A DNA stretch of 38,077 nucleotides, from assembly GCA_013297645.1 (NCBI GenBank), contig JAAFHU010000004.1, positions 1 through 38,077 of the forward strand, in the 5' to 3' direction. The notes below the pieces were generated by a model. It saw nothing but the letters and a program-made list of their open reading frames with translations, made no database searches and had not been told where the DNA came from. Below are positions 1,388 to 33,890 of this stretch, in pieces; position 1 is the first letter of the stretch, and the number at the start of each line of letters is the position of its first letter. The position numbers and the translations under genes were made by a program. This stretch comes from Actinomycetota bacterium. GTDB lineage: Bacteria; Actinomycetota; Actinomycetes; Actinomycetales; Microbacteriaceae.

Positions 1388-1401
1388 GCATCTCGTATTT
1401 T
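1371..1401 (+). promoter_or_regulatory. Promoter of the YdeI-family gene (leaderless)
   Basis: TTGACG (1371-1376), a 19-base spacer, then TATTTT (1396-1401). The hexamer ends 6 bases before the ATG at 1408, so transcription should start on the ATG. The -35 lies inside the last codons of the preceding gene. The spacer is slightly longer than the usual 17. Confidence 0.6.
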
Positions 1402-1407
1402 GGGTGC

Positions 1408-2007
1408 ATGGCGATCTCCGACCACCCGCCGACGTGGAAGTTCGACTACCCGATCGTGCACGCCGAGACCCGGGCGCAGTGGCGCGCGTGGCTGAGCGAG
1501 AATGCCGCGTCGACGCGGGGCGTCTGGCTGTGCTCGTGGCGCACCCCCACCGGCCGGCCCCGCTGCCCCTACCCCGAAGCGGTCGAAGAGGCCATCTGCT
1601 TTGGCTGGGTCGACTCGACCGCCACCAACCTCGACGAGGAGCGCGGCCTGCAGCTGTACACGCCGCGCAGGCCGAAGAGCTCGTGGACCCGCCTCAACCG
1701 CCAGCGCGCGGCCGACATGGAGGCGCAGGGCCTCATGACCGACGCGGGTCGCGCGGCGATTGCCGCAGCGAAGGCGAGTGGCTGGTGGACGATCCTCGAC
1801 TCCGTCGAAGACCTCATCGAGCCGCCCGAGCTGGCGGCAGCGCTCGACGAGAACGCGCTCGCCCGACAGAACTGGGACGGCTTCTCGCCCAGCGCCCGCA
1901 AGTTCATGTTGTACCAGATCGTCAGTGCCGCCCGGCCAGAGACCCGGCTGGCCCGAGTAACCCTGATTGTCGAGGCGGCGGCGGAGGGCCGACGCGCCTA
2001 CGGGTGA
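1408..2007 (+). CDS. YdeI/OmpD-associated (OmdA) family protein
   Basis: This encodes a 199-residue soluble protein. The N-terminal half carries the WRAWLSENAAS...GVWL and EEAICFGWVDS segments, followed by PRRPKSSWTRLN. The C-terminal FSPSARKFMLYQIVSAARPETRLAR is the diagnostic OmdA-like block ('lspsrRr.yl.wI..Ak.peTR..Ri'). Some homologues have been linked to bacteriocin or antimicrobial-peptide protection; the biochemical activity is unsettled. The start is fixed by a -10 element exactly 6 bases upstream, which implies leaderless expression. It converges with the flavoprotein at 2033 with a 25-base gap and no clear terminator hairpin between them. Confidence 0.85.
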   Translation: MAISDHPPTWKFDYPIVHAETRAQWRAWLSENAASTRGVWLCSWRTPTGRPRCPYPEAVEEAICFGWVDSTATNLDEERGLQLYTPRRPKSSWTRLNRQRAADMEAQGLMTDAGRAAIAAAKASGWWTILDSVEDLIEPPELAAALDENALARQNWDGFSPSARKFMLYQIVSAARPETRLARVTLIVEAAAEGRRAYG

Positions 2008-2032
2008 GCGCCACCCGCGAGCTCAACCGGCC

Positions 2033-3139
2033 CTAGCGCGCCCTCTTCGCGATCTTCTTGGCGTCGATCGCGACCTGGCGGATGTTGCCGGTGATCGGGT
2101 TCGAGTAGCCGAGGAAGAAGAGCCCCTCGAGGCCGGGCAGCTGCTCGTCGGCGTTGATCAGGGGGCGGCCTCCGGGGGCGACCACGCCGAGGTCGCCGAC
2201 GAGCGGCTCGAGCCCGCGCTGGAAGCCGGTCGCGACGAGCACGACGTCGGCGGTGACGGTGGTTCCGTCGGCGAGCTTCGCGGCATCCTTGGTGAATCCT
2301 TCGACGGCCGCGACGACCGAGATCGTGCCGGCCTTGAGGGCGTCGATGAGCCCCACGTCGATCGTCGGCGTGACGTCGTCCTCGGCCTGCTGCGAGAAGA
2401 CGCCGCGCGGCGCCTTCTGCAGACCGTACTTGCTGAGGTCGCCGACCGTGAGAATCTGCATGCCGCGGGCGACCTTGTCGGCGATCTTCGTCGGCAGGGG
2501 ATAGGTCGAGAGGGTGAGCGACTGCGTCGGGATGCCGAGCACCTCGCGCCGCACGATGTTCGGTGGAGTGCGCACGGCGAGCGTGACGGCGATGCCCTCG
2601 CCCGCGAGGTCGGCCGCGATCTCGGCGCCGCTGTTGCCGGGTCCGACGACGAGCACGTGCTTCGCGTCCAGGGCGGCGGGGTTGCGGTACTCGCTCGAGT
2701 GCACGACCCGGCCCTTGTATGACTTCAGGCCCGGCCAGTCAGGGATCTTCGCCGTGTGGTTGTAGCCGGTGGCGACGACCACCGCGTCCGCCTCGAGGGC
2801 GCCGATGGACGACTCGACGACCCAGCGGCCGTCTTTCTTGGCAATGGACGACGCGGTCACGCCGAGGCGCACATCCAGGTTCTTCGCGTAGTCGGCGAGG
2901 TAGGCACGGAAGTCGTCGCGGGCGACCCAGCGGCCGTACTTCTTCGGGATGACCTGCCCCGGCAGCGAGCTCATGGTGCGCGCCGTGTGCAGGTGCAGGC
3001 GGTCGTAGTGCTTGCTCCAACTCGACCCGACGGAGTCCGCCTTGTCGATGACGATGACGGCATAGCCGACCTTCTGCAGTTCGGCTGCAGCGGCGAGGCC
3101 GGCGGGGCCGGCTCCAACAACAATGGCATCTTTGCTCAT
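2033..3139 (-). CDS. Flavin-containing monooxygenase-like NAD(P)/FAD oxidoreductase
   Basis: This is a 368-residue two-dinucleotide-fold flavoprotein of the FMO/CzcO/YUCCA type, predicted to oxygenate small nucleophilic or keto substrates using FAD, NAD(P)H and O2. Visible motifs are an FAD-binding GAGPAG at residues 9-14, the FMO signature variant YKGRVVHSSEY at 141-151 (consensus FxGxxxHxxx[WY]), the NADPH-binding GPGNSG at 166-171, and two 'ATG[YF]' motifs (ATGYN near 123 and ATGFQ near 300). Length is a little short for a full FMO but normal for the small bacterial YUCCA-like group. A -10 TAGAGT sits 6 bases before the ATG, so the gene appears leaderless. It diverges from ychF within 45 bases. 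Substrate is unknown. Confidence 0.88.
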   Translation of the reverse strand: MSKDAIVVGAGPAGLAAAAELQKVGYAVIVIDKADSVGSSWSKHYDRLHLHTARTMSSLPGQVIPKKYGRWVARDDFRAYLADYAKNLDVRLGVTASSIAKKDGRWVVESSIGALEADAVVVATGYNHTAKIPDWPGLKSYKGRVVHSSEYRNPAALDAKHVLVVGPGNSGAEIAADLAGEGIAVTLAVRTPPNIVRREVLGIPTQSLTLSTYPLPTKIADKVARGMQILTVGDLSKYGLQKAPRGVFSQQAEDDVTPTIDVGLIDALKAGTISVVAAVEGFTKDAAKLADGTTVTADVVLVATGFQRGLEPLVGDLGVVAPGGRPLINADEQLPGLEGLFFLGYSNPITGNIRQVAIDAKKIAKRAR

Positions 3140-3145
3140 GGCAGA

Positions 3146-3151
3146 ACTCTA
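3146..3151 (-). promoter_or_regulatory. -10 element, leaderless promoter of the flavin monooxygenase
   Basis: TAGAGT on the minus strand ends 6 bases before the ATG at 3139. No good -35 is seen. It lies only 20 bases from the oppositely oriented -10 of ychF, so the two polymerase footprints must overlap. Confidence 0.5.
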
Positions 3152-3170
3152 GGGGCAACGGGCGCCCCGG

Positions 3171-3176
3171 TACGAT
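3171..3176 (+). promoter_or_regulatory. -10 element upstream of ychF
   Basis: TACGAT ends 8 bases before the GTG start at 3185. This allows leaderless or near-leaderless transcription. No Shine-Dalgarno sequence is present between hexamer and start. Confidence 0.45.
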
Positions 3177-3184
3177 AGACCCTC

Positions 3185-4258
3185 GTGGCTCTCACTATTG
3201 CAATCGTCGGCCTGCCTAACGTAGGCAAGTCCACCCTTTTCAACGCGCTCACCAAGAGCGCGGTGCTCGCGGCGAACTACCCCTTCGCGACGATCGAGCC
3301 GAACACGGGCATCGTCTCTCTGCCCGACAGCCGGCTGCAGGTGCTCGCCGGCATCTTCGGCTCCGAGCGCATCCTGCCGGCCGCCGTCACCTTCGTCGAC
3401 ATCGCCGGCATCGTCAAGGGCGCCTCGGTCGGTGAGGGCCTCGGCAACAAGTTCCTCGCCAACATCCGCGAGGCGGACGCCATCGCCCAGGTGGTGCGCG
3501 GCTTCGAAGACGCGGATGTCGTGCACGTCGACGGCAAGGTCGACGCGGCCGGCGACATGGAGACCATCAATACCGAGCTCATCCTCGCCGACCTGCAGAC
3601 CCTCGAGAACGCGCTCGGCCGCTATGACCGCGACCTGCGCGCCAAGAAGATCACGCAGGAGACCATCGACACCGCCAAGGCCGCCGTCGAATGGCTGAAC
3701 GCCGGCAAGCCGCTCAGCGCGTCGTCGCTCGACATCGCGCCCCTGCGCGAGCTCGGGCTGCTGACCGCCAAGCCCTTCATCTACGTCTTCAACGTCGACG
3801 AGACGGTGCTCGGCGATCAGGCCGCCCTCGACTCCCTCGCCGCCCTCGTCGCCCCCGCCAAGGCGATCTTCCTCGATGCGAAGCTCGAGTCCGAGCTCAT
3901 CGACCTCTCGCCCGACGAGGCCCTCGAGCTTCTCGAGTCCACCGGCCAGACCGAGAGCGGACTCAACCAGCTCGCCCGCATCGGCTTCGACACCCTCGGC
4001 CTGCAGACCTACCTCACGGCCGGCCCGAAAGAGGCGCGGGCGTGGACGATTCCCAAGGGCGCGAAGGCGCCGCAGGCCGCCGGCGTCATCCACTCCGACT
4101 TCGAGAAGAAGTTCATCAAGGCCGAGGTCATCGGCTTCGACGACCTCGTGGCCACCGGCTCCATCGCCGAGGCCCGTGCGGCCGGCAAGGCCCGCGTCGA
4201 GGGCAAGGACTACGTCATGCAGGATGGCGACGTGGTGGAGTTCCGTACGGGGGCGTAG
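3185..4258 (+). CDS. ychF: Redox-regulated ATPase YchF (Obg family)
   Basis: This is a 357-residue member of the universally conserved YchF/OLA1 subfamily of Obg-type P-loop proteins, which binds ribosomes and, unusually, prefers ATP over GTP. Visible motifs are G1 GLPNVGKST (residues 9-17), G3 DIAG (72-75) and a G4 position reading NVDE (203-206) rather than NKxD. The altered G4 is the hallmark linked to relaxed guanine specificity. A coiled-coil-like region lies at about 130-170. The C-terminal TGS domain (about 275-355) holds the [24 protein letters not shown] and [14 protein letters not shown] segments. The GTG start gives the canonical N-terminus ([16 protein letters not shown]), and a -10 lies 8 bases upstream. 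Length and motifs are standard. Confidence 0.97.
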
Positions 4259-4276
4259 CTCGCCACTCCGGCCGCC

Positions 4277-4305
4277 TAGCCATGGTGCCGTCCATTGCCT
4301 ATCGT
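4277..4305 (+). promoter_or_regulatory. Candidate promoter of the DUF2510 gene
   Basis: TAGCCA (4277-4282; 4 of 6 matches to TTGACA), a 17-base spacer, then TATCGT (4300-4305). This predicts a leader of about 33 bases. Unlike most neighbours, the gene has a purine-rich GGGGGAGG site directly before its ATG. Confidence 0.4.
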
Positions 4306-4344
4306 GTAGCTGAGCATTGATTCAGTTGTCAGACGGGGGAGGCG

Positions 4345-5256
4345 ATGAGCGACGGCCAGTCGATACCGCCTGCGTGGTATCCCGACCCCGGGGGATCAGG
4401 CGGTCAGCGCTGGTGGACCGGGGCAGGGTGGACGGATCACGTGCGGCCACTGCCCGTTGAGCAGCCCGCATTGCCCCCTACGCCCCAGCACGCTCCGATC
4501 GGGCAGTACTCGTCGGGATATCAGCAGCCAGCGAACCCTTTCGCCCAGGCGGCACCCGCCGCGCCGCAGCAGTACGCTCCGATGTCCTTCCAGCCGGGCT
4601 CCCGCGGTGAGAGCAACTACTCCGCAAGCAGACCGGGCCCGATCGACAACACCCAGGGCTGGATATCCCTCGCGGCGGGTGTCATATCGCTGATACTGCT
4701 GGCGGTCGGATCCATGGCGGGATTCATCGTCTTCGGCACCGCCACCGCCGTGCTCGTCGCCATCTCGGCCGGGGCACGATCGCTTGTTGCTCGAGGCGCG
4801 GGCACATCGACCGCGCTGGCGACGCCCATCCTGGGGATCGTGCTCGCCCTGACGACCGTCGTCATCTACATCGGATCTCTTCTCCTGGTGAACGCTGCCG
4901 CGGGTGCCGGACCCGCGGACTACAACCCCGACGACGTGCACTTTCCCAACAACCCCGAGATGTCTGTCATGTTCGACACGGCGTACGCCATCGAGCACGA
5001 GCTGCACCAGATCAGTTCGAGCGGCAATTGGCCGGATGAGCTGGTGGCAGATTCCGAGGGAACCGTCTGGTTCGACTCGGTGGCGCTTGGCACGATCGCC
5101 CCGGGTCAGACTTTCGAATACCTGACCTTCAATCAGGGGCAGAGCTTTCAGTTCACCATCTACGGAACGGTCCCCGGTGAGACGGTGTTCTACACCTCCG
5201 ACACGGACATCATCACCGGCAACTGCTACGAGACAGATACCACCTGCTTCTCGTAG
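4345..5256 (+). CDS. DUF2510 domain-containing membrane protein
   Basis: This 303-residue protein begins with a DUF2510 module at about residues 7-35 (PPAWYPDPGG...RWWTGAGWTDH), a tryptophan-rich element common at the N-termini of actinobacterial membrane proteins. A low-complexity Pro/Gln/Ala linker follows (about 35-95). Two or three hydrophobic segments then lie between about 105 and 190 (GWISLAAGVISLILLAVG; FGTATAVLVAISAG; ILGIVLALTTVVIYIGSLLL). A C-terminal domain of about 110 residues, probably extracytoplasmic, ends with two Cys in the last dozen residues. The module order resembles DUF2510-DUF4190-type proteins. Function is unknown. The start is supported by GGGGGAGG immediately upstream. 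It is not obviously co-transcribed with ychF. Confidence 0.8.
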   Translation: MSDGQSIPPAWYPDPGGSGGQRWWTGAGWTDHVRPLPVEQPALPPTPQHAPIGQYSSGYQQPANPFAQAAPAAPQQYAPMSFQPGSRGESNYSASRPGPIDNTQGWISLAAGVISLILLAVGSMAGFIVFGTATAVLVAISAGARSLVARGAGTSTALATPILGIVLALTTVVIYIGSLLLVNAAAGAGPADYNPDDVHFPNNPEMSVMFDTAYAIEHELHQISSSGNWPDELVADSEGTVWFDSVALGTIAPGQTFEYLTFNQGQSFQFTIYGTVPGETVFYTSDTDIITGNCYETDTTCFS

Positions 5257-5281
5257 CGCCCGGTGACGGCAAGATGGTCGC

Positions 5282-5698
5282 ATGAGAAAGCCCAGCGAGC
5301 GGCGGTCGGACTACGTTCTCGGTGATCCGGGGTTGACTGCCTACGACCACGGCGTGGGCACCCTGCGGGTTGACGGCGAGCTACGGGGCTACCTCGCGAG
5401 CTATCTGGGCGGCGAGCTGCCCAACGATCCCCGCCCCTGGTTTGTCGTCGTGTGGACTGACGGAACGAAGGAGAAGCCCTTCGGCGACCATGCCCCTGCG
5501 TGGTCGACGGTTCGCGAGCTGGATGCCGGCTACTTCGATCACGTCGAACAGGGCTCGACCGTCGAGGGCCGCTTCCTCGGCTTCCGGAGCGTGCGCTCGA
5601 TGCCCGGGCCACCCTGTCGCTACGAGTTCGCCTGGCTGCCGGTCGTCGAGGCGGCGGCGAAGTGGGAGCAGCTGGGTCTCGTCGACGAGGACTTCTAG
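5282..5698 (+). CDS. Hypothetical protein, 138 aa
   Basis: This is a soluble protein of 138 residues that I do not recognise. It has no signal peptide or membrane segment. It is rich in aromatic residues and acidic in its C-terminal half (WFVVVWTDGTKEKPFGD; DAGYFDHVEQGSTVEGRFLGFRSV), which suggests a compact beta-rich fold. A CAAGAT hexamer ends 6 bases before the ATG, a near match to the TANNNT leaderless pattern seen elsewhere. The 25-base gap to the gene before and the 20-base gap to the next contain no terminator. Reality is supported by codon usage and by tight packing between genes of the same strand. Confidence 0.7.
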   Translation: MRKPSERRSDYVLGDPGLTAYDHGVGTLRVDGELRGYLASYLGGELPNDPRPWFVVVWTDGTKEKPFGDHAPAWSTVRELDAGYFDHVEQGSTVEGRFLGFRSVRSMPGPPCRYEFAWLPVVEAAAKWEQLGLVDEDF

Positions 5699-5706
5699 GC
5701 CGGGCG

Positions 5707-5712
5707 TAGACT
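5707..5712 (+). promoter_or_regulatory. -10 element, leaderless promoter of the SOUL gene
   Basis: TAGACT ends 6 bases before the ATG at 5719. This supports 5719 as the original start of the now frameshifted gene. Confidence 0.5.
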
Positions 5713-5718
5713 CCGGCC

Positions 5719-6236
5719 ATGACCGAGCGACAGCCGAGCGAGCTCATCCGCGACTATGGCGACTTCGAGTTGCGGCGGTATCCGTCGCATGTGCTCGTCG
5801 AGGTCGAGTCGGACGGCGATTTCTCAGCGCGGGCAATCGCGCCTTCCGGCCATTGGTGAGCTACATCAGCGGCAGCAACGCTGCGGGCCAGTCGATGGCG
5901 ATGACCGCGCCGGTCGCCCAGAGCACTCTGGCCGGTGGCCGCTACCTCGTCACCTTCGTTCTGCCCGCGGGCACCGACCCGTCGACCGTGCCGGCTCCAC
6001 GCGAGGGTAGCGTGCGGGTTCGCCACGTCGAGCCCTACGAGGCCGGCGTCGTCAGCTTCTCGGGCGGCTGGAGCGAGAAGCGCTTCACCGAGGCCGCCAC
6101 GAAGCTGCAGGCCGCCATCGCCGAGGCCGGGCTCGAGGCTACGGGCGAGGTCATCTTCGCCCGCTTCGACCCGCCCTTCAAGCCCGGCTTTCTCAAGTAC
6201 AACGAGGTGATCCAGCCGGTCGTCAGCACGACGTAG
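5719..6236 (+). pseudogene. SOUL-family haem-binding protein, frameshifted
   Basis: The gene is split between two frames. Frame one (5719-5859) reads MTERQPSELIRDYGDFELRRY...VEVESDGDF and then runs into a TGA at 5857. The rest of the family continues in the frame ending at 6236: SAGNRAFRPLVSYISG, SMAMTAPVAQ, FVLPAG, and a C-terminal FARFDPPFKPGFLKYNEV. Joined near 5822-5826, the two parts give a complete SOUL/HBP-family protein of about 170 residues. The 'GNRAFRPLVSYISG...iaMTAPV' block is the family hallmark. A single missing base near GATTTCTCAGC is the simplest explanation. It could be a true pseudogene or an assembly or sequencing error; the downstream part shows no further decay, which slightly favours a recent event or an error. 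Confidence 0.82.
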
Positions 6237-6239
6237 GCT
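6234..6239 (+). promoter_or_regulatory. -10 element, leaderless promoter of the SDR gene
   Basis: TAGGCT ends 6 bases before the ATG at 6246. Its TAG is also the stop codon of the preceding SOUL reading frame. Confidence 0.5.
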
Positions 6240-6245
6240 CACAGC

Positions 6246-6902
6246 ATGACGAAGCTCGATGGCGCGGTGGTTCTGGTTGCTGGCGAGACGGGCGGGCTCG
6301 GCTCGCGCATCGCGGCGCAGCTGCAGGCGGCAGGGGCGACCGTTGTGGGCGCGTCCCGCTCGACCGGCTTCGACTTGCGCACCCCGGCCGCGAATGACGC
6401 TGCGGTCGCGGGCGCCGTCTCGGCGCACGGCAGGCTCGACGGGCTGGTGATCGCGACCGGCGAGGTCGCCTTCGGCCCGGCATCCGAGCTGCAGCCGGGC
6501 ACCGTCGACGAGCTCTTCTCCCTCAACACCGTTGGCCCGATCCACCTCATTACGGCGGCGCACTCCGCGCTCGCCGCGTCCGCGGCGGCCGGCGGCGAGC
6601 CCTTCATCGTCACCCTCAGCGGCGTGGTCGCTGAGTCGCCGACCGCCGGGCTTGCGGCCTACTCCGCCTCGAAGGCGGGGCTCGCGGCCTTCGTGACGGC
6701 GGCCGCGCGCGAGTACCGGCGTTCCGGCATCCGACTGCTGGATGCCCGCCCCGGCCACACGGCAACCGCGCTTTCCACGCACCCCATCGCAGGCACCGCG
6801 CCGGCCTTCGGCGCCGCACTCGACCCGGACGCCGTGGCAGCCCGCATCGTGCGCGCCATCGTCGACGGCGAGAAGGACCTGCCGAGCGGGGCCTTCGCGT
6901 AG
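6246..6902 (+). CDS. Short-chain dehydrogenase/reductase (SDR)
   Basis: This is a 218-residue classical-type SDR, a cytosolic NAD(P)(H)-dependent oxidoreductase. The cofactor loop reads GETGGLG (residues 13-19; consensus TGxxxGxG). The structural LNTVG motif has its Asn at 94. The catalytic set is Ser125 (VTLSG), Tyr139 and Lys143 (YSASK). The protein is shorter than the usual 245-255 residues, with a compressed region between the first two strands (GASRSTGFDLRTPA) where the adenine-binding acidic or basic residue normally lies. The C-terminus closes soon after the DARPGHTATAL segment. Substrate cannot be inferred. Leaderless start (see promoter). It overlaps no neighbour. Confidence 0.9.
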   Translation: MTKLDGAVVLVAGETGGLGSRIAAQLQAAGATVVGASRSTGFDLRTPAANDAAVAGAVSAHGRLDGLVIATGEVAFGPASELQPGTVDELFSLNTVGPIHLITAAHSALAASAAAGGEPFIVTLSGVVAESPTAGLAAYSASKAGLAAFVTAAAREYRRSGIRLLDARPGHTATALSTHPIAGTAPAFGAALDPDAVAARIVRAIVDGEKDLPSGAFA

Positions 6903-6977
6903 CGCGGGACCCATATCAATGACGGCGGTGTTGCCCAATCGTTAGCGAGAGGCCTGATCGCTTGGGTCCAACCGTCC

Positions 6978-6983
6978 TACGCT
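6978..6983 (+). promoter_or_regulatory. -10 element, leaderless promoter of the lipoprotein gene
   Basis: TACGCT ends 6 bases before the ATG at 6990. No convincing -35 is visible. Confidence 0.5.
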
Positions 6984-6989
6984 CAAGCC

Positions 6990-7457: not shown

Positions 7458-7463
7458 TACCGT
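7458..7463 (+). promoter_or_regulatory. -10 element, leaderless promoter of the membrane-protein pair
   Basis: TACCGT ends 6 bases before the ATG at 7470. It would drive both paralogous genes, which overlap by 4 bases. Confidence 0.5.
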
Positions 7464-9463: not shown

Positions 9464-9469
9464 TATGGT
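9464..9469 (+). promoter_or_regulatory. -10 element, leaderless promoter of add
   Basis: TATGGT ends 6 bases before the ATG at 9476. Confidence 0.5.
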
Positions 9470-9475
9470 TGCACC

Positions 9476-10522
9476 ATGAAGGATCTCGCCAAGGTATCGC
9501 TGCACGACCACCTTGACGGCTCCCTTCGACTGACGACCGTGCTCGAGCTGTCGGCGGCCCCGCCCGCCGATACCGTCGACGGCTTGCGTGCCTGGATCAA
9601 CGAGCGCAGCCTCAGCGGCGACCTCGTCGAGTACCTGCGCTCGTTCTCGCTCACGGGCGCGGTGCTGCAGACCGCAGAGAACCTCGAGCGTGTCGCCCAC
9701 GAGTACGTGCTCGACCTCGCGGCCGACGGCGTCGTCTACGCCGAGGTGCGCTGGGCTCCTGAGCTCTCGCACTCCCTGCCGGTCGCAGCGGCCGTCGAGG
9801 CAGTGTCATCGGGGCTGCGCCGCGGCGAGCGCGAGACCGGCATCACCGTGCGGCAGATCCTCATCGGCATGCGCCAAGGGCACCGGGTCGCCGAGATCGC
9901 CGACCTCGCCCTCGCGCTGCGCGAGACCGACGTCGTCGCCTTCGACCTCGCCGGGCCCGAGGCAGGCTACCCGCCGAGCCTCTTCGCCCCCACCCTCGAC
10001 AAGCTGCAGGGCGAGTGGATGCCGGTCACCATCCACGCGGGCGAGGCCGACGGCCTGGCGAGCATCGCCTCCGCCCTCGCCGACGGACACGCGCTGCGCC
10101 TCGGGCACGGGGTGCGCATCGTCGACGACGTGCGGGTGGTCGACGGCGAGCCGGTGCTCGGGCGGTTGGCGCAGTGGGTGCGGGATCGCGAGATTGTTCT
10201 CGAGGCGAGTCCGACATCCAATTTCCACACGGCGGCCTTCGTGGGGGAGCGGTTCAGCGATCATCCTTTCGCCCTGCTCGACCGGGCGGGCTTCGCCGTC
10301 ACCGTGAACACGGACAACCGGCTGATGAGCGACACGACGCTGAGCGCGGAGCTCGAGAAACTCAGCGCGGCCTTCGGCTTCACCCTCGCCGACCACGAGC
10401 GCTTTCAACTCACCGCGGCCGCGGGAGCTTTTCTCCCCGAGCCGCAGAAGCGGCAGCTGGCGCAGAAAATCCGTGCGAGCTTCGCCGCCGCGGGTCTAGC
10501 ATCGGGGCATGTTCCTCACTGA
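9476..10522 (+). CDS. add: Adenosine deaminase
   Basis: This 348-residue enzyme hydrolyses adenosine or deoxyadenosine to inosine and ammonia in purine salvage. The zinc and catalytic residues are all visible: HDH at residues 10-12 (His10 and His12), HAGE at 187-190 (zinc His187, catalytic Glu190), LGHG with His211, SPTSN at 246-250, and NTDN with Asp280. Length is typical. The N-terminus begins only nine residues before the HxH motif, as in canonical add. The last 14 bases overlap the next gene in another frame. Deaminases acting on adenine or aminodeoxyfutalosine share this fold, but the full motif set and the long insert around 90-150 best fit adenosine deaminase. Confidence 0.93.
   Translation: MKDLAKVSLHDHLDGSLRLTTVLELSAAPPADTVDGLRAWINERSLSGDLVEYLRSFSLTGAVLQTAENLERVAHEYVLDLAADGVVYAEVRWAPELSHSLPVAAAVEAVSSGLRRGERETGITVRQILIGMRQGHRVAEIADLALALRETDVVAFDLAGPEAGYPPSLFAPTLDKLQGEWMPVTIHAGEADGLASIASALADGHALRLGHGVRIVDDVRVVDGEPVLGRLAQWVRDREIVLEASPTSNFHTAAFVGERFSDHPFALLDRAGFAVTVNTDNRLMSDTTLSAELEKLSAAFGFTLADHERFQLTAAAGAFLPEPQKRQLAQKIRASFAAAGLASGHVPH
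10497..10502 (+). promoter_or_regulatory. -10 element inside add, leaderless promoter of the DUF1761 gene
   Basis: TAGCAT ends 6 bases before the ATG at 10509. It lies within the final codons of add, so the downstream genes could be expressed independently. Confidence 0.45.
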
Positions 10523-10940
10523 GCTCAACTGGATCGCCATCCTCATCGGCTTCGTCGTCTTCTTCGCCGTCGGGGCCGTCTGGTTCGGGCCGAAGACCTT
10601 CTACCCTGCCTGGGTCAAGCTCATCGGCGCGGTCGAGACGCCCGGACAGGGCCTCGGCCACCACGGCATGCCCTTCGTCTTCGGGCTCACCGCGCTGGGC
10701 GCCCTCGTGCAGGTGGTCGCGCTCGCGAGCGTCATCCACTTCGTCGCACTCGCCAACGGCCCGGTCGGCCCGCTCGGCGGGCTTCTGGTCGGCTTCCTCG
10801 TGGGCGTCGGTTTCGCGGCAGCCAGCTCGCTCTCGCACCGCCTTTTCAGCGGCCAGGGCATCCGGGTCTGGCTGATCGAGGTGGGCGGCGACATCGTCTC
10901 GATGACGCTCGCCGGGCTAGTGATCGGGCTCTTCGGATAG
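10509..10940 (+). CDS. DUF1761 family membrane protein
   Basis: This 143-residue integral membrane protein has four predicted helices. The N-terminal NWIAILIGFVVFFAVGAVWFGPKTFYPAWVKL is the hallmark of DUF1761 ('n..ail.a.va.f.lG.lWY..LFgk.W'). Residues GLLVGFLVGVGFAAASSLSHRLFSGQ and the closing IEVGGDIVSMTLAGLVIGLF also fit the family. Function is unknown. It overlaps the end of add by 14 bases and has its own -10 there. The next gene follows after 9 bases, again with its own leaderless promoter. Confidence 0.85.
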   Translation: MFLTELNWIAILIGFVVFFAVGAVWFGPKTFYPAWVKLIGAVETPGQGLGHHGMPFVFGLTALGALVQVVALASVIHFVALANGPVGPLGGLLVGFLVGVGFAAASSLSHRLFSGQGIRVWLIEVGGDIVSMTLAGLVIGLFG

Positions 10941-10943
10941 TCT
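10938..10943 (+). promoter_or_regulatory. -10 element, leaderless promoter of the DoxX-like gene
   Basis: TAGTCT ends 6 bases before the GTG at 10950. Its TAG is the stop codon of the DUF1761 gene. Confidence 0.5.
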
Positions 10944-10949
10944 GCCCCC

Positions 10950-11369
10950 GTGGTAGACCGCACTTCGCTTCCTAGAACCCTCGGCCGCATCGCTTTCGGC
11001 GCCGCTCTGCTCTTCGCCGGCACGACGCACCTCACGGTCGCGCGCGAGGAGTTCCAGGCGCAGGTGCCCGAGTGGGTGCCGCTCCATCCGGACCTCGTCG
11101 TGCTCGGATCGGGCGTCGTCGAGATCGCCCTCGGCGCGGCGCTCATCGCCCTGCCGAAGCAGCGCGTGCCCGTCGGGCTCGCCGCAGCCGCCTTCTTCAT
11201 CGCGATCTTCCCCGGCAACATCAGCCAGTTCGTCACCCACACCGACGCATTCGGCCTCAACTCCGATACCGCCCGCGGAGTGCGGCTGCTCTTCCAGCCT
11301 CTGCTCGTTCTCGGCGTGCTGTGGGGCACGGCAGCGTGGCGCGACCGCCGCACTCTGCTGCCGAAATGA
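10950..11369 (+). CDS. DoxX-like small membrane protein
   Basis: This 139-residue protein has four predicted membrane helices, laid out like the DoxX family: an N-terminal RIAFGAALLFAGTTHLT segment, then LGSGVVEIALGAALIAL, VGLAAAAFFIAIFPGNISQF and a last LLFQPLLVLGVLWGTAA. DoxX-type proteins are linked in some actinobacteria to membrane redox or thiol-stress complexes, but many members have no known role. The GTG start is supported by a -10 exactly 6 bases upstream. Its stop codon overlaps the ATG of the acetyltransferase gene (ATGA), so the two are translationally coupled. Confidence 0.78.
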   Translation: MVDRTSLPRTLGRIAFGAALLFAGTTHLTVAREEFQAQVPEWVPLHPDLVVLGSGVVEIALGAALIALPKQRVPVGLAAAAFFIAIFPGNISQFVTHTDAFGLNSDTARGVRLLFQPLLVLGVLWGTAAWRDRRTLLPK

Positions 11370-14994: not shown

Positions 14995-15000
14995 TAGGCT
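14995..15000 (+). promoter_or_regulatory. -10 element, leaderless promoter of the 177-aa membrane protein gene
   Basis: TAGGCT ends 6 bases before the ATG at 15007. Confidence 0.5.
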
Positions 15001-15791: not shown

Positions 15792-15797
15792 AGGCTA
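15792..15797 (-). promoter_or_regulatory. -10 element, leaderless promoter of the mycoredoxin gene
   Basis: TAGCCT on the minus strand ends 6 bases before the ATG at 15785. It lies 13 bases from the opposing -10 of the AlaX-like gene, giving a second compact divergent leaderless pair. Confidence 0.5.
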
Positions 15798-19600: not shown

Positions 19601-19680
19601 AGCTCGTTGAGGGTGACGAGGGCGGCGATGCCGAGCACGACGAGGGCGGTCGAGCTGCCGATGGTGCGTCGAATGCGCAT
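16636..19680 (-). CDS. Polytopic membrane protein with C-terminal patatin-like hydrolase domain
   Basis: This 1014-residue fusion-type protein has roughly 12-14 predicted membrane helices across residues 1-555, for example ALIVGHALVDLLFITAYGVL and LVLVLYALLGSLLGV. A patatin-like hydrolase domain follows. That domain has the oxyanion glycine run EGGGIRAA (Gly592-594), the nucleophile elbow GASGG (Ser626) and the DGG motif of the Ser/Asp dyad (VDGGLTDN, Asp831). Patatins hydrolyse acyl esters of phospholipids or other lipids. All ten cysteines are in the hydrolase region and none in the membrane part, suggesting disulfides and an exported catalytic domain. The TTG start of the ORF track is replaced by the ATG at 19680 because TAGATT lies 7 bases upstream. 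Natural substrate is unknown. Confidence 0.85.
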   Translation of the reverse strand: MRIRRTIGSSTALVVLGIAALVTLNELSRLVGEVLAADGHTHAIADVIGLGAGSELDAWADWRSAAFSPTALIVGHALVDLLFITAYGVLAYRLFRFAERSEGRSADRPLVLLYSVIAFDLIEDALLAALALTGDERLPIVLAVVVYAKWAATLVLVLYALLGSLLGVPVRRAIGTTLLALYAQRLSALVVIAVGVITLVSADGVLEQVPDVYRSWLQYPLSGLSWMPSFNVPAILFSTAAFLLTGLSIVALGRQRARHYRRRTTATDERADAATWPWFAFAAATAAVALVLWAVTGGRSVDWQTTLVFIGIIVAIAAGSAFVRWRGYGLAAPLLTSKLDGRAAAVSLAGDLLALAWVAIWALGPFKALLSPLLLAASGAFDGSRFASSFWSLLVIEVALGVLALVAVVAVRRWLNSAPRERDTGSPTAVVAAAFSDDAPTDERVIASLRAAGRWVVAISVLVIVVLLVFPRVVAYAIGPVALLVLLIGAWTTLIGALILALGQARPLEVFQLLRLRATPVVTLLVLLPIVVSLVDGAPALHAIRTIEPGGFAERDTLRTGFTAWYDAQECALTLPESGASAVPLLLVAAEGGGIRAATWTVDVLRELPRDGSCAAGSTLLSSGASGGSIGIASFQQEGNAATSSADLDTTPLGGSGALAAGIAGLLGGDLVGSVTGLRVPSPVDYGNLLGEWAWQDRTALQEATWAQDAPQFAQPYDVEPQAPTGYMVFNTTDSISNCRVVVSQLDLTTQVSAEQGTVEGPSVPTCNGEDAEVANTVDLQDYIGNCIFSLDWATASELSARFPVLSPAGRISNETLPADCKTVSDMQLVDGGLTDNTALGTIADLSPELVQLITATNARANGADLPYVVPIVMYISNNAGADVTATPDGTRPEALIPLTALLQAPRGLLTASSWLTRLSTELDNVCPATDTVCAAALDEVREQVPQGVAVVQPSTTPSVSVPLGWTISSFSRTRLRLEAETQAECGKTGSAVECFTGGGYGRLGDVLDLFIDD

Positions 19681-19687: not shown

Positions 19688-19693
19688 AATCTA
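19688..19693 (-). promoter_or_regulatory. -10 element of the patatin-like membrane protein gene
   Basis: TAGATT on the minus strand ends 7 bases before the ATG at 19680. It overlaps the upstream TTG, which therefore is unlikely to be the start. Confidence 0.4.
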
Positions 19694-19758: not shown

Positions 19759-19793
19759 GGGCCCACAATCGAATACCGGGCCGTTCAACACGA

Positions 19794-20009
19794 TGCGGGA
19801 GAGTTCGGTGCATTCCTCCCGAGGGGGAGCGCACGGGACACCGAAGGAGCAAGCCTCCCTGCCAATCTCTCAGGTTCATGTACCGCACCGTCTAGGCCGC
19901 TCTGAAAAGTGCTTGCTTCGCAAGCGGGTCGCGCCTGTCGCGACCTGTGAATGCAGGCCGCCCACGGTGAAAGCTGCAACCCAGCGAAGCTCTCAGGCCT
20001 ATGACAGAG
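19794..20009 (+). ncRNA. Tandem glycine riboswitch (two aptamers)
   Basis: This is the gcv leader. Aptamer 1 spans about 19794-19887, closed by TGCGG/CCGCA. It contains GGGAGAG near the 5' end and the conserved core CACCGAAGGAGCAA...CCAATCTCTCAGG. Aptamer 2 spans about 19900-20009, closed by CTCTG (19900-19904) and CAGAG (20005-20009). Its core GGTGAAAGCTGCAACCC...GCTCTCAGGCC matches the second-aptamer consensus. A short linker joins them. Glycine binding classically turns on glycine cleavage genes so that excess glycine is degraded. The ORF-track start for gcvT (20001) falls inside aptamer 2 and is therefore wrong. Confidence 0.95.
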
Positions 20010-28698: not shown

Positions 28699-28724
28699 GG
28701 GGATTTCCTTCGGGTCTTTCCGTG

Positions 28725-28759: not shown

Positions 28760-28777
28760 GGTGGTGGAACTAGCTAC

Positions 28778-30520
28778 TTACTTGGAGGACTTGATGAAGA
28801 TCGATCCGAAGTCCGGGTAGAAGCTCGAGGCGACGTCCGGGAGGAAGCCGTCAATGTTCGAGCCGTACAGGAAGTAGTTGTTCTGCTGAACAACCGGGAT
28901 GTACGCACCGTCTGCACCGGCGACGGCGTCAGCCTGCGCGAACAGCTTGGCTCCCTCGGCCGGGTCAGTAGCCGCAAGGCCCTGCTCGATCAGGTCGTCA
29001 ACCTCGGGGTTGCTGTAGAACCCGTAGTTGAAGCCCACGCCGGACTCGGCGTCAGCCGGGTTCGAGCGGAGGATCGGCACGACGACGGTCGACATGGCCG
29101 GCCAGTCAGCTGCCCAGCCACCGAGGAAGACGTCGACCTTCTGGCCGTTCTTGTCCTTCGCGGCCATCTGGCCGTAGTAGCCGGGAACCGCGTCGGGCGC
29201 GATGCCGAGAGGCGTCACGATGAATCCGGCAGCCTCAAAGCTCTGCTGGATAACCGGGATGAGCTTCTCGTTGGTCGGGCTGATCGCGTAGGCGACGGTG
29301 ATCTCGGGGGTTGCACCGCCGAGCAGCTCCTTGGCCGCCTCCGGGTCACCCGCCGAGTTGTCGTCAGCGAAGGCCGGGTTCTCTTCGAAGCCCGAGACTG
29401 CCTTGGAGACGATCGACGTCGACGGCTCACCGTAGTTGTCGCCACCGTAGGCCTGGATCATGCCGTCCTTGTTCAGCGCGACCGCGAGAGCGCGGCGCAC
29501 GTCGGGGTCGGTGACCGTCAGCGAGTTGATGAAGAGGAATCGCGTGTACGGCGAGGTGCTCTTCAGCGTGCGGTCGGCGATGTCGCCGCTCTCGACCTGC
29601 GAGTAGAACGTGGCCGGGATGTTGGCGTCCGAGAACGCCTCCTTGTCCGTGCCCGCGTCGGCGACGAGGCGCTGGAACAGCACGTCGCTGTCAGCGACGA
29701 GCTCGAAGTTGAACTGGTCGGGCAGAGCCTGGCGCAGGTCGGTCGAGTCGGTCGCCGCGTCGTACTCCGGGTTGCGGACGAAGGTCGCGCCCTGTGCGGC
29801 GTCGAATTCATCCTCCTCCATCATGTACGGACCGTTCGAGTTGATCTCCCAGAGGGTGGATCCGTCGTCGAACGAGGCCTGGTACGGGTCGGTCGTGAAG
29901 AGGCCGGCAGCCGCGGACGGGAAGTCGCCCCACGGGTTGTCGAACTTGTAGGTGACCGTCTGTCCGTCAGCGAAGAAGTGCTCGTCGAAGACAGCCTTGG
30001 CGGCATCCGTCGAGGTGAAGGGGCCGGTGTAGCCAGCCTCGACGACCGAGGGAGCGTAGCTCGAGAGGTAGGTCACGCCGACGCCGGTGCCGTTGACGAG
30101 GGTCTCGTCGAAGGAGCGGGAGAGGCCGTAGACGAAGTCTTCGCCGGTGATCGGCGAGCCGTCCTCCCACTTGACGTCGTCCTTGATGGTGAAGGTCCAG
30201 GTGAGACCGCCGTCGTCGGACGTGCCGGTGTCGGTGGCAAGGTCGGCAACCGGAACGGGGTTCGGGTCGTCGGTGATCGGCAGCGCGGTCAGGCCGCGGT
30301 AGACGAGGCGGCGGAATGCGGCAATCTCGTTGCCGTAGTAGACGGTCGCAGGGTCGGTGCCCTCCCACTGCCCGGCAACGCCGAGGTAGGTGACGGTGCC
30401 GCCGGCGTTGCCGGAGCCCCCGCTGGTGCCGTCGGTGGACGCACCGCACGCCGCGAGTGAGGTGATGACCACACCGGCGAGTGCGATTGCGCCCAGACGG
30501 GCAATCGGTCGCTTCTTCAT
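28778..30520 (-). CDS. oppA: Family 5 extracellular solute-binding lipoprotein OppA/DppA-like
   Basis: This 580-residue surface lipoprotein captures peptides for the ABC importer. The signal peptide MKKRPIARLG...TSLAAC places the lipid-modified Cys at residue 25, followed by a Gly/Ser-rich tether. The SBP_bac_5 fold shows in GGLTWTFTIKDDVKWEDGSPITGEDFVYGLSRS (the 'y.ftLr.dvkWsDGtpvtAeDv' region) and later DPDVRRALAVALNKDGMI. The ORF-track start at 30868 lies inside oppC; the ATG at 30520 has AAGGAG nine bases upstream. It is unusual in sitting between the two permease genes. An efficient SD and the downstream hairpin suggest high expression. Confidence 0.94.
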   Translation of the reverse strand: MKKRPIARLGAIALAGVVITSLAACGASTDGTSGGSGNAGGTVTYLGVAGQWEGTDPATVYYGNEIAAFRRLVYRGLTALPITDDPNPVPVADLATDTGTSDDGGLTWTFTIKDDVKWEDGSPITGEDFVYGLSRSFDETLVNGTGVGVTYLSSYAPSVVEAGYTGPFTSTDAAKAVFDEHFFADGQTVTYKFDNPWGDFPSAAAGLFTTDPYQASFDDGSTLWEINSNGPYMMEEDEFDAAQGATFVRNPEYDAATDSTDLRQALPDQFNFELVADSDVLFQRLVADAGTDKEAFSDANIPATFYSQVESGDIADRTLKSTSPYTRFLFINSLTVTDPDVRRALAVALNKDGMIQAYGGDNYGEPSTSIVSKAVSGFEENPAFADDNSAGDPEAAKELLGGATPEITVAYAISPTNEKLIPVIQQSFEAAGFIVTPLGIAPDAVPGYYGQMAAKDKNGQKVDVFLGGWAADWPAMSTVVVPILRSNPADAESGVGFNYGFYSNPEVDDLIEQGLAATDPAEGAKLFAQADAVAGADGAYIPVVQQNNYFLYGSNIDGFLPDVASSFYPDFGSIFIKSSK

Positions 30521-30609
30521 ATTTGGCTCTCCTTGGTGATGAGATGGGCGGCGCCCGCTGACAGGCACCGTTCTTTTCTTTCGGAGTTGCCTCCGGAAGT
30601 CTTCGTGGT

Positions 30610-31611
30610 CTAGCGGCTTCCCTTCGGGTCCAGCGCGTCGCGAAGCCCGTCGCCCAGAAGGTTGAAGGCGACGACCAGGATCACGAGCACGAGGACCGGG
30701 ATGATGAAGTAGGTGAAGTCGGCGACCGGGTAGCGAACGGCATCCTGCAGCACGTTGCCGAGGGTCGGCGTGGGCTGCTGCACCGACACGTTGAGGTAGG
30801 CGAGGGCTGCCTCGGTCGAGATGTAGGCCGGCAGGATGAGCGTGCCCTGCACGAGGATCGGCGCCCACAGGTTCGGCAGCACCTCGCGGAACCAGCGGCG
30901 CATCGGGCTCGCGCCGATCAGCTTGGCAGCGTCGATGTACTCGCGCTCCCGGATGCTGAGCACCTGGCCGCGGATAACGCGGGCCACGCCCACCCAGCCG
31001 AACACTGCGAGCACGAGGATGACGTAGGCCGCGCGAGCGAGGTCGCCCTCGGGGATGAAGAAGACCGTGGTCAGGATCCCCAGCACCGTGCTCGAGAGCG
31101 CGAGCAGCATGAGGGTCTGCGGGAAAGCGAGGGTGAGGTCGATGAGACGGCCGATGAGGTAGTCGACCCAGCCGCCGGTCAGGCCGGCGATGATGCCGAA
31201 CACGACGCCGAGCAGCATCGCAAAGAAAGAGCCGATGATGGCGATGGCGAAGGAGAAGGTCAGGCCGAACCAGATGCGACTCAGAGTGTCGCGGCCGAGA
31301 CCGGGCTCGACACCGAAGGGGTGGTCCCAGCTGATTCCGCCGAAAGCGCCGATCGGCAGGCTGTCGTTGGCGATGAGGTCTTGGTTGTTGTCATAGGGGT
31401 TGAGCACGCCGAGCGCCACGAGAATGGGCGCGGCGATAGCGAGAAGCACGTAGATACCGACGATGACCGCCGCCACCACGGTCTTCTTGTCACGTGTGAA
31501 CCGCGCCCAGGCGAGCTGGCGGGGCGAGCGGCTCAGCACTACATTCCGCGGTTCCGTGCCCATCGTTGAAGCCGTGGCGCCGGTGGAGGGAAGGGGAGGG
31601 TTGAGCTTCAT
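30610..31611 (-). CDS. oppC: Oligopeptide ABC transporter permease OppC/DppC-like
   Basis: This 333-residue permease has an N-terminal cytoplasmic extension (about 38 residues, ending SPRQLAWARFTRDKKTV) and six helices. The family's early periplasmic segment reads HPFGVEPGLGRDTLSRIWFG, and the EAA loop reads REYIDAAKLIGASPMRRWFREVLPNLWAPI. The 'HplGtD..GRDvlSRliyG' motif is diagnostic of DppC. It is the first full gene of the operon. A 23-codon ORF ends two bases upstream (TAGACATG), so initiation may depend on re-initiation. A later Met (MGTEPRNVVLSRSP, residue 17) is a possible alternative start. Confidence 0.92.
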   Translation of the reverse strand: MKLNPPLPSTGATASTMGTEPRNVVLSRSPRQLAWARFTRDKKTVVAAVIVGIYVLLAIAAPILVALGVLNPYDNNQDLIANDSLPIGAFGGISWDHPFGVEPGLGRDTLSRIWFGLTFSFAIAIIGSFFAMLLGVVFGIIAGLTGGWVDYLIGRLIDLTLAFPQTLMLLALSSTVLGILTTVFFIPEGDLARAAYVILVLAVFGWVGVARVIRGQVLSIREREYIDAAKLIGASPMRRWFREVLPNLWAPILVQGTLILPAYISTEAALAYLNVSVQQPTPTLGNVLQDAVRYPVADFTYFIIPVLVLVILVVAFNLLGDGLRDALDPKGSR

Positions 31612-31613
31612 GT

Positions 31614-31685
31614 CTATGACCGCGCCTTCGCCGGAGCCGCCGGCACGTGAGGGGCGGGAATGTCGATCGTTGTCGTGCTGCTCAT
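31614..31685 (-). CDS. Short upstream ORF (23 codons) before oppC
   Basis: An ATG at 31685 opens a 23-codon frame that begins MSSTTTIDIPAPH, continues Ala/Pro-rich and ends with TAG two bases before the oppC ATG. It is in a different frame from oppC. The sequence GAGAGCGAAG precedes its ATG. It could be a translated leader coupling expression of oppC, or a former N-terminal extension of oppC separated by a frameshift: its Ser/Thr and Pro/Ala-rich composition resembles the flexible tails of DppC proteins. I cannot decide between these. Confidence 0.35.
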   Translation of the reverse strand: MSSTTTIDIPAPHVPAAPAKARS

Positions 31686-31851
31686 ACTTCGCTCTCGGTA
31701 TTGCTCATTCGGGGCCGAGGCTCTCAATTCGGCTCCCTCATTGGAGCCAGTAATCACCACAGCCGTTCCGACCCGTTCCCTTTTCTCGGGGGACGGGCGA
31801 CCAGTTCACGATAGACCCTGTTCACCGGCTATTCGACTTTGAGAGATAACT

Positions 31852-31867
31852 GTTACATGCCGGTAAC
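31852..31867. promoter_or_regulatory. Candidate operator, inverted repeat GTTAC-N6-GTAAC
   Basis: This is a perfect 5-bp inverted repeat with a 6-base spacer and a 16-base total span, in the AT-rich part of the divergent region. Dimension and position suit a dimeric regulator, but no regulator gene is adjacent. Confidence 0.3.
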
Positions 31868-32032
31868 GAATTAATAGCATCGCGGTGCATCTCGGCGCTA
31901 ACGACCCGCCTGACGTGCTCACTCGCGCAATTCGCGCACGATACGCACGATTATTGCGTTTCACAGAAGATTCATGCGAAACCATCGATTTGGGCGCAAC
32001 TTCTTGGGTGTTAGCGAACGTCGGTTGCAACC

Positions 32033-32097
32033 GGGGTACCGTGTGGCGGTCGAACATAACGATCGGGGTACAAATGGCCCTCGAACGGGTGGGGTAC
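32033..32097 (+). repeat. Three direct repeats of GGGGTAC before the orphan SBP gene
   Basis: GGGGTAC occurs at 32033-32039, 32065-32071 and 32091-32097, with start-to-start distances of 32 and 26 bases. Copies two and three are each preceded by TCGAAC (32050 and 32081). All lie within about 110 bases of the start codon at 32142. Spacing close to whole or half helical turns suggests repeated binding of one regulator. Confidence 0.45.
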
Positions 32098-32129
32098 TTC
32101 GCGCACGGCCTACCCCCGACTTCGATCGT

Positions 32130-32135
32130 TAAGCT
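32130..32135 (+). promoter_or_regulatory. -10 element, leaderless promoter of the orphan SBP gene
   Basis: TAAGCT ends 6 bases before the GTG at 32142. The transcription start should coincide with the GTG. Confidence 0.5.
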
Positions 32136-32141
32136 GAACCG

Positions 32142-33890
32142 GTGTCGAGACTCAAGCGTGCCGTGGTCGCACTCGGGCTGCTCGGGCTCGCTGCGGGAAC
32201 GCTCTCGGCGTGCGCACCGACCAGCCTGGTCGTGCAGGGCAGCACGGTCACGGTGGCGAGCGCACAGCCCTTCACGTCCTTCAACGACCAGACCACCTAC
32301 GGCAACACGGCCGCGAATACCGGCGTGGTCGGGGCGGTCACCAGCGGCTTCACTTACTACGACGACGGCCCCACCCTCGTGCGCGACGAGAGCTTCGGCC
32401 ACATCGAGGTCGTGTCGCAGAACCCATTCACGGTTAGTTACACCGTGAATGCCGGAGTCACGTGGTCCGACGGCCAACCCGTCGACGGTGCGGACCTCCT
32501 GCTCGCCTGGGCCGCGAACAGCGGGCACCTCAACAGCGAGGGCTTCAACCCCGCTCGCTACACCGACGCCGAGACGGGTCAGTTCGATCCCTTCCCCACA
32601 GGCACCGTCTACTTCGACGGCGCCTCCCACTCGGGCCTGCAGTATGTCTCGGCCCTACCAGAGCTCGGTGCCGACGGCCGGTCGATCACCCTCGTCTACG
32701 ACGAGTACTTCGTCGACTGGGAGTTGGCCTTCGATGTGGGCCTGCCCGCGCACGTGGTCGCCGAGAAGTCTTTCGCGGTGACAGCGACCGAGGACGAGAC
32801 CGCGGGCGCAGTCGCCAAGCGGCTCGTCATCGATGCCATTGCCGGCGGCGAGGCGGCCAGGCTCTCCACGCTCTCGCAAGTCTGGAACTCCGGCTTCGCG
32901 GCCGAGGGTGCCGGGCCCTTCGTGGGCTCCGGCCCGTATTCGATAGCAGAGATCGTGCCCAACGAGTCGGTCACCCTCGCCGCGAACCCGCTGTACACCG
33001 GCGACCGCCGCCCGCGCTACGAGACCGTGGTGGTGCGCACGGTCACCGATCCCCTCGAGGCCGTCACGGCGCTCGCCGCGGGCGAGGTCGACGTGATCGC
33101 GCCCGCGCCGAGCGCGGAGGTGAGCCGCGCGCTCGATGCGGTTGACGGCATCCACGTGGTTGAGGGCCAGAGCGCGATGTTCGAGCACCTCGACCTGCAG
33201 TTCTCGGCGGGCAAGAACCCCACCTTCGACAACCCGCTGCTGCGCGAGGCCTTCCTCGCGACCGTTCCCGTCGCCGAGATCGTCGAGCTCTCGGGCGGCG
33301 TCGCGCGCGACTCCTTCCTGTTCGCGCCCGACGGTGCCGTACCGCCGCGGCCCGACCTGCCGAAGGCGAAGCGACTTATTGCGCAGGCGGGGGTCGCGGC
33401 GCCCCCGGTGTGCATTCTGTTCGACCCCTCCAACCCGCGCCGGCTGGCCGAGTTCCTGCTGGTGAAGGAGGGGGCAGAGAAGGCGGGCTTCGTCGTCACC
33501 GACTGCTCGGCATCCGACTGGCAGGGATTTCTCGGCGTGCCGAACGCCTATGACGCTGCGCTCTTCGCCTGGAACGAGACCACGACGGCCGTCTCGGCTC
33601 CCGAGGCGCGCCTGCTGTCGACCTCGACGGTGAGCAACTTCTCGAACTACGCGAACCCGACGGTCGACGGGCTGCTCGCCGAGCTCGCGGTGACGGACGG
33701 CGCAGAGCAGCAGCAGGCACTGCTCGAGCAGATTGATGCGCAGCTGAAGGACGACGCCTACGGGATGCCGCTCTACCAGTTCGCCGCGGTCGTCGCCCAC
33801 ACCGACGGGATCGACGGGATCGCCCCCTCCGCCCTCTCCGGGCTGCTGTGGAACGTCTGGCAGTGGCAACCCGCCCAATCCGGCGGATAG
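32142..33890 (+). CDS. Orphan family 5 solute-binding lipoprotein
   Basis: This 582-residue exported lipoprotein has the signal MSRLKRAVVALGLL...GTLSAC, with the lipidated Cys at residue 24. The SBP_bac_5 fold is visible in FTVSYTVNAGVTWSDGQPVDGADLLLAW and later FDNPLLREAFLATVP. No permease or ATPase genes accompany it on this strand; it diverges from the complete opp operon and may feed that transporter with a different substrate, or act as a sensor. Its binding domain is diverged from OppA in the operon: the usual 'aDF.ys' is replaced by ADLLLAW. The GTG start is supported by the -10 six bases upstream. Its stop lies four bases before the typA -10. Confidence 0.9.
   Translation: MSRLKRAVVALGLLGLAAGTLSACAPTSLVVQGSTVTVASAQPFTSFNDQTTYGNTAANTGVVGAVTSGFTYYDDGPTLVRDESFGHIEVVSQNPFTVSYTVNAGVTWSDGQPVDGADLLLAWAANSGHLNSEGFNPARYTDAETGQFDPFPTGTVYFDGASHSGLQYVSALPELGADGRSITLVYDEYFVDWELAFDVGLPAHVVAEKSFAVTATEDETAGAVAKRLVIDAIAGGEAARLSTLSQVWNSGFAAEGAGPFVGSGPYSIAEIVPNESVTLAANPLYTGDRRPRYETVVVRTVTDPLEAVTALAAGEVDVIAPAPSAEVSRALDAVDGIHVVEGQSAMFEHLDLQFSAGKNPTFDNPLLREAFLATVPVAEIVELSGGVARDSFLFAPDGAVPPRPDLPKAKRLIAQAGVAAPPVCILFDPSNPRRLAEFLLVKEGAEKAGFVVTDCSASDWQGFLGVPNAYDAALFAWNETTTAVSAPEARLLSTSTVSNFSNYANPTVDGLLAELAVTDGAEQQQALLEQIDAQLKDDAYGMPLYQFAAVVAHTDGIDGIAPSALSGLLWNVWQWQPAQSGG

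What the first reader, a model, noticed from the sequence alone, without database searches (positions are those of the whole stretch)
1396..32144. Window-wide leaderless architecture: TANNNT placed exactly 6 bases before start codons
A TANNNT hexamer ends exactly 6 bases before the start codon in thirteen cases: 1408, 3139(-), 5719, 6246, 6990, 7470, 9476, 10509, 10950, 15007, 15785(-), 15822 and 32142. It is 7 or 8 bases away at 19680(-) and 3185. Three A/T positions at one fixed offset should be rare at this GC content, so chance cannot explain the set. Leaderless mRNAs are known to be common in actinobacteria; the exactness and density here, and the absence of good -35 boxes in most, are the notable parts. 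Genes with regulation or high expression (gcvT, oppA, typA, the lipoprotein pair) fall in the leadered class.
Basis: partly seen in the sequence, partly recalled or inferred. Interest (0 to 1): 0.72.

Follow-up and report, generated by a model that had tools for sequence, protein, structure and literature searches.

The report
Leaderless promoters across an actinobacterial genome
In this actinobacterium about one gene in four seems to be transcribed exactly from the first letter of its start codon, with the promoter's -10 box sitting six bases upstream; this is real and widespread but already well described in actinobacteria.

Summary
All 13 cited start codons have TANNNT at exactly -12..-7. 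Of 2,164 ATG/GTG triplets in the window, exactly 13 carry the motif at -12, matching the listed starts in number and strand; other offsets give 0-4. The window lies in a Microbacteriaceae draft genome (RpoB 89% to Gryllotalpicola and Agromyces). In 1.33 Mb sampled from it, TANNNT peaks at -12 (219 of 1,312 genes), tails through -13 (89), -14 and -15, and stops at -11 (6). About 18-25% of genes fit.

Independent signatures support leaderless transcription: no Shine-Dalgarno (5% against 40%), no TTG starts (0 of 308), no -35 box, and, when the box is one base too far, a pyrimidine at -1 so that initiation can fall on the start codon. The architecture is conserved between orthologues (58% against 6%) and across the order. 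This is the known 'TA-led' leaderless class of Actinobacteria (Zheng 2011; Cortes 2013; Shell 2015). No transcript ends were available. The least ordinary by-product is compact divergent leaderless pairs, with start codons only 11-23 bp apart.

The parts
1396..1401 (+). -10 box TATTTT, spacer 6, leaderless start 1408 (OmdA/YdeI-like protein)
3146..3151 (-). -10 box TAGAGT, spacer 6, leaderless start 3139 (FAD/FMO-like oxidoreductase)
3171..3176 (+). -10 box TACGAT, spacer 8, start 3185 GTG (YchF GTPase); bases -2 and -1 are pyrimidines
5707..5712 (+). -10 box TAGACT, spacer 6, start 5719 of a SOUL haem-binding gene that is frameshifted in this assembly
6234..6239 (+). -10 box TAGGCT, spacer 6, leaderless start 6246 (short-chain dehydrogenase); the box overlaps the stop codon of the SOUL frame (ends 6236)
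6978..6983 (+). -10 box TACGCT, spacer 6, leaderless start 6990 (putative lipoprotein)
7458..7463 (+). -10 box TACCGT, spacer 6, leaderless start 7470 (membrane protein)
9464..9469 (+). -10 box TATGGT, spacer 6, leaderless start 9476 (adenosine deaminase family)
10497..10502 (+). -10 box TAGCAT, spacer 6, inside the 3' end of the 9476-10522 gene; leaderless start 10509 (DUF1761)
10938..10943 (+). -10 box TAGTCT, spacer 6, overlapping the upstream stop codon; leaderless start 10950 GTG (weak DoxX/MauE similarity)
14995..15000 (+). -10 box TAGGCT, spacer 6, leaderless start 15007
15792..15797 (-). -10 box TAGCCT, spacer 6, leaderless start 15785 (glutaredoxin); divergent partner of 15822, 36 bp between the start codons
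15810..15815 (+). -10 box TACCGT, spacer 6, leaderless start 15822; the motif is kept at the G001 orthologue with a start one codon away
19688..19693 (-). -10 box TAGATT, spacer 7, start 19680, C at -1
32130..32135 (+). -10 box TAAGCT, spacer 6, leaderless start 32142 GTG (SBP_bac_5 lipoprotein)
19786..19895 (+). Glycine riboswitch upstream of gcvT (20001 or 20049): a truly leadered gene, a contrast case
   Evidence: (RF00504, 56.9 bits)

Best explanation
The hexamers are -10 boxes of the housekeeping sigma factor. With the hexamer at -12..-7 and the start codon at +1, RNA polymerase initiates on the A or G of the start codon and makes leaderless mRNAs that ribosomes start on without a Shine-Dalgarno. 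About 18-25% of this genome's genes are built this way, including many inside apparent operons. The one-sided spacing (6 much more than 7, then 8-9, almost never 5) follows because a shorter spacer would start the RNA inside the start codon and destroy it. Longer spacers are tolerated if the skipped positions are pyrimidines (spacers 7-8), or give a tiny leader if the canonical +1 is a purine (spacer 9). Shown by sequence: position, composition, conservation, SD absence, codon restriction. Inferred: actual transcript starts, which sigma factor, and translation of leaderless mRNA.
For: Sharp -12 peak, cliff at -11, flat out-of-frame ATG/GTG control. 219/89/21/19 genes at -12/-13/-14/-15 against 6 at -11. 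Spacer 6 against spacer 3 whole-genome counts 335 against 30. SD core 5% against 40% in non-motif genes; operon-like genes 8% against 43%. TTG 0 of 308 against 48 of 974, P=2e-6, as in mycobacteria where TTG fails at the leaderless position (PMC4633059). Purine at -1 in 9/89 of the -13 class against 69/219 of the -12 class, P=5e-5, replicated in other actinobacteria P=0.003. G-rich discriminator and C at -1. No -35 (z=-1.0), as in M. tuberculosis (PMC3898074). Motif kept at 58% of orthologous starts in a congener against 6% for non-motif genes. The 16S anti-SD is intact, so both modes coexist.
Against: No transcript 5' ends exist for this organism here. Gene calls and starts come from a home-made caller. 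The orthologue test rests on 31 genes of the -12 class. The -15 class is small (17).
Confidence: 0.95

Rival explanations
1. TANNNT at -12 is a translation signal (an unusual ribosome-binding element in a 5' leader), not a promoter box.
For: Fixed distance to the start codon, which a translation element would also show.
Against: Anti-SD is canonical. The discriminator, the -1 C, the -13 class pyrimidine rule and absence of TTG fit transcription initiation. TANNNT is the mapped -10 motif in M. tuberculosis.
Confidence: 0.02
2. Chance, or selection of start codons by the reader.
Against: A scan of every ATG/GTG in the window finds 13 hits at -12, the same number and strand split as the listed starts, and at most 4 at other offsets. 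Genome-wide peak with flat out-of-frame control.
Confidence: 0.005
3. The boxes are real, but many of these genes are mainly expressed from upstream promoters (operon read-through or distal), leaderless transcripts being minor.
For: 52 of 429 tightly spaced same-strand genes have the box in the -12 or -13 register.
Against: Those genes lack SD (8% against 43%), so read-through message would be poorly translated.
Confidence: 0.1

Closest known systems
TA-led (leaderless) genes of Zheng et al. 2011 (PMC3160421)
   Same: TANNNT counted from the first T about 12 bp before the start codon; Actinobacteria average 19.2% of genes; middle bases uninformative in high-GC genomes.
   Different: Only the species. 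Here the spacing is resolved to single bases, with the -11 cliff and the pyrimidine rule for off-by-one spacers.
Leaderless transcriptomes of M. tuberculosis and M. smegmatis (PMC3898074, PMC4633059)
   Same: TANNNT -10, no -35, C at -1, purine +1, ATG/GTG but not TTG, about a quarter of genes with a primary TSS.
   Different: There TSSs were mapped; here they are inferred. Here ATG is enriched over GTG in the class (219:89 against 522:404), whereas Cortes et al. found similar frequencies.
The -10 motif adjacent to ORFs in Deinococcus-Thermus (PMC12340547)
   Same: Same TANNNT placed just before ORFs, shown by mutation to drive leaderless expression.
   Different: A different phylum with a higher share (about one third of genes in D. 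radiodurans).
Bidirectional promoters of E. coli (PMC12825309)
   Same: Closely spaced divergent -10 boxes; TSS distances near 23 bp occur in both.
   Different: Here both RNAs would start on start codons. The symmetric 18-bp form is not enriched.

Membership tests
Actinobacterial leaderless (TA-led) genes | TANNNT about 12 bp upstream of the start codon, enriched over other offsets | tested here: met
Actinobacterial leaderless (TA-led) genes | No Shine-Dalgarno in the class while the rest of the genome uses it | tested here: met
   5% against 40%; anti-SD in 16S
Actinobacterial leaderless (TA-led) genes | ATG or GTG only at the 5' end | tested here: met
   0 of 308 TTG in the -12 and -13 classes
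Actinobacterial leaderless (TA-led) genes | Initiator preference (pyrimidine -1, purine +1) | tested here: met
Actinobacterial leaderless (TA-led) genes | No conserved -35 | tested here: met
   TTGACA match z=-1.0, no informative column upstream
Actinobacterial leaderless (TA-led) genes | Transcript 5' end coincides with the start codon | not testable with these tools
   needs 5'-end sequencing
Actinobacterial leaderless (TA-led) genes | Leaderless mRNA is translated | not testable with these tools
   needs ribosome profiling or reporters
Symmetric bidirectional promoter (TANNNTA, TSSs 18 bp apart) | Excess of CAY-N5-TANNNTA-N5-RTG over control | tested here: not met
   own genome 1 against 0; over 60 genomes not above the reversed control

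The most novel reading that the evidence does not exclude
Some divergent gene pairs are packed into minimal dual leaderless promoters. In the 17-bp module CATANNNTNANNNTATG each -10 box overlaps the other gene's start codon, so the two transcripts would be mutually exclusive at each firing and neither gene has any untranslated DNA of its own between the starts. The genome has two (DUF255/thioredoxin with an MBL-fold hydrolase; chorismate-binding enzyme with a class-IV aminotransferase). The first is kept, with different N bases, at the same start in a congener with 68% protein identity (G004). Further pairs have start codons 14-23 bp apart (upp with a tadA-like deaminase, murI with pncB).
Probability: 0.4. 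Interest if true: 0.45.

Novelty: new member of a known kind. Interest (0 to 1): 0.27.

Why it matters
It is a clean sequence-only case of leaderless expression in Microbacteriaceae; no transcript-start map of that family turned up in the literature searched. The rule (RTG with TANNNT at -12, SD absent) is precise enough to fix start codons: all 13 hits in 38 kb match listed starts. The pyrimidine rule for off-by-one spacers and the 11-23 bp divergent pairs make direct predictions for transcript-start mapping.

Tried and rejected
An apparent threefold excess over a congener (14.5% against 4.7% of genes) was an artefact of my gene caller training on antisense frames; with retraining the congener gives 13% at -12 and 21% for -12 to -15. 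The call at 5754-6938(-) was the same artefact: no Pfam hit, while the + strand carries SOUL and SDR genes. The symmetric TANNNTA bidirectional promoter (18 bp TSS distance) is not enriched. Codon adaptation as an expression proxy rests on only four reference genes; medians do not differ (P=0.1), and only the top quintile is depleted. Gene-level counts from small or rpoB-neighbourhood samples of Streptomyces, Mycobacterium and others are too few to rank lineages. Most gap-11 CAC...GTG hits in relatives look like chance coding-sequence matches, so that pattern is not clearly enriched overall; only the CAT...ATG form looks meaningful.

Full report
Observation. Every coordinate in the finding is right: thirteen starts have TANNNT at -12, one at -13 (19680-) and one at -14 (3185). 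Scanning all 2,164 ATG and GTG triplets of the window gives thirteen with TANNNT at -12, 11 on the + strand and 2 on the - strand, which is the number and strand split of the listed starts; all other offsets between -6 and -30 give 0 to 4.

Where it is. The window is contig 174 of a 2.45 Mb, 239-contig draft genome. Its RpoB is 89% identical to Gryllotalpicola and Agromyces, so the host is in or next to Microbacteriaceae. The 16S rRNA ends with a normal anti-Shine-Dalgarno.

Genome-wide test. I took 1.33 Mb of the same genome, called genes by codon statistics without using upstream signals, and plotted TANNNT by offset. With starts chosen by coding potential alone the peak is 135 at -12, 47 at -13, 17 at -14, 12 at -15 and 3 at -11, against about a dozen or fewer elsewhere, while out-of-frame ATG/GTG in the same regions are flat. 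After retraining and allowing any plausible in-frame start, 219, 89, 21 and 19 of 1,312 genes have the box at -12, -13, -14 and -15. Depending on how starts are chosen, 18% (excess over background) to about 25% of genes fit. The fraction is highest where genes diverge (40%) and still 14% in tightly packed same-strand genes.

Why it is transcription from the start codon. First, Shine-Dalgarno cores occur in 5% of the -12 class, below the 13% found 100 bases further upstream, against 40% of other genes. Second, none of 308 genes in the -12 and -13 classes starts with TTG, against 48 of 974 others; in mycobacteria TTG is inert at a leaderless position (Shell 2015, PMC4633059). Third, the discriminator is G-rich and C precedes the start. 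Fourth, when the box is one base too far, the base at the canonical +1 (position -1) is a purine in only 9 of 89 genes against 69 of 219 in the exact class (P=5e-5), replicated in other actinobacteria (12 of 78 against 49 of 144, P=0.003). This is expected if polymerase must skip that base to start on the A or G of the start codon. In the small -15 class the canonical +1 is a purine in 14 of 17, suggesting a three-base leader there; this did not clearly repeat in the congener (4 of 7). Fifth, no -35 signal exists upstream. The cliff at -11 follows: one base less and the transcript would lose the start codon's first base.

Conservation. Between this genome and a congener, orthologues of -12-class genes carry a box in the -12 to -15 register at 58% of starts, against 6% for non-motif genes. 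Identity peaks at T-12, A-11 and T-7 (only 17 pairs). Across 60 relatives, TANNNT-N6-ATG is far commoner than TANNNT-N3-ATG in nearly all (own genome 335 against 30). Against a reversed-pattern control it is not enriched in most of the Firmicutes, Cyanobacteria, Chloroflexi, Bifidobacteriaceae and Coriobacteriia genomes tested.

Leadered contrast. gcvT lies behind a glycine riboswitch (19786-19895), which needs a leader. The top codon-adaptation quintile is poorer in leaderless genes (17% against 25-31%), in line with M. tuberculosis, but the proxy is weak.

Known or new. Zheng et al. 2011 described this signal, position and consensus, and gave Actinobacteria an average of 19.2% leaderless genes. 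Cortes et al. 2013 mapped it in M. tuberculosis, and a 2025 study proved the promoter role in Deinococcus. The window is therefore a clear new instance of a known architecture.

By-product. Divergent pairs with short gaps are mostly leaderless (61% of genes at gaps under 60 bp, 25% above 100 bp), and the same holds in the congener (77% and 21%). The tightest put two start codons 11 bp apart, each -10 box overlapping the opposite start codon. One such module, before a DUF255 gene, is at the matching start in congener G004: that gene begins at 1848649 on the - strand and the pattern spans 1848647-1848663. Other tight pairs include uracil phosphoribosyltransferase with a tadA-like deaminase and murI with pncB. 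A TSS distance of 23 bp fits a known bidirectional promoter spacing; 12 bp is near the reported 10 bp.

Noticed in passing
window 5719-6236 (+): SOUL haem-binding gene with an apparent frameshift within the first 140 bases: assembly error or pseudogene. The antisense ORF 5754-6938(-) is spurious.
   Followed up: partly
L147:15411-15423; L165:12996-13008: Divergent gene pairs with only 11 bp between start codons and a leaderless -10 box in each direction overlapping the other gene's start codon (CATANNNTNANNNTATG).
   Followed up: partly
G001 C1:1839025, G003 C1:1135266, G005 C28:20278: The same 17-bp dual pattern (CATACCCTGAGTNTATG) occurs in three congeners with nearly identical sequence and not at the DUF255 gene: probably a second conserved divergent pair.
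   Followed up: no
window 9464-11369 and 429 operon-like genes of the sample: Tightly packed same-strand genes with their own leaderless box and no SD (52 of 429): apparent operons that may be series of single leaderless genes.
   Followed up: partly
G010 (1.4 Mb genome of the same family): Spacer-6 and spacer-3 counts are nearly equal (269 against 253), so this reduced genome may have lost most of the architecture.
   Followed up: no
window 33895-34023: A TAGACT box lies at -11 of an upstream GTG (33906) of typA, while the better start (34023) is preceded by AAGGA: consistent with a leader of about 115 nt.
   Followed up: no
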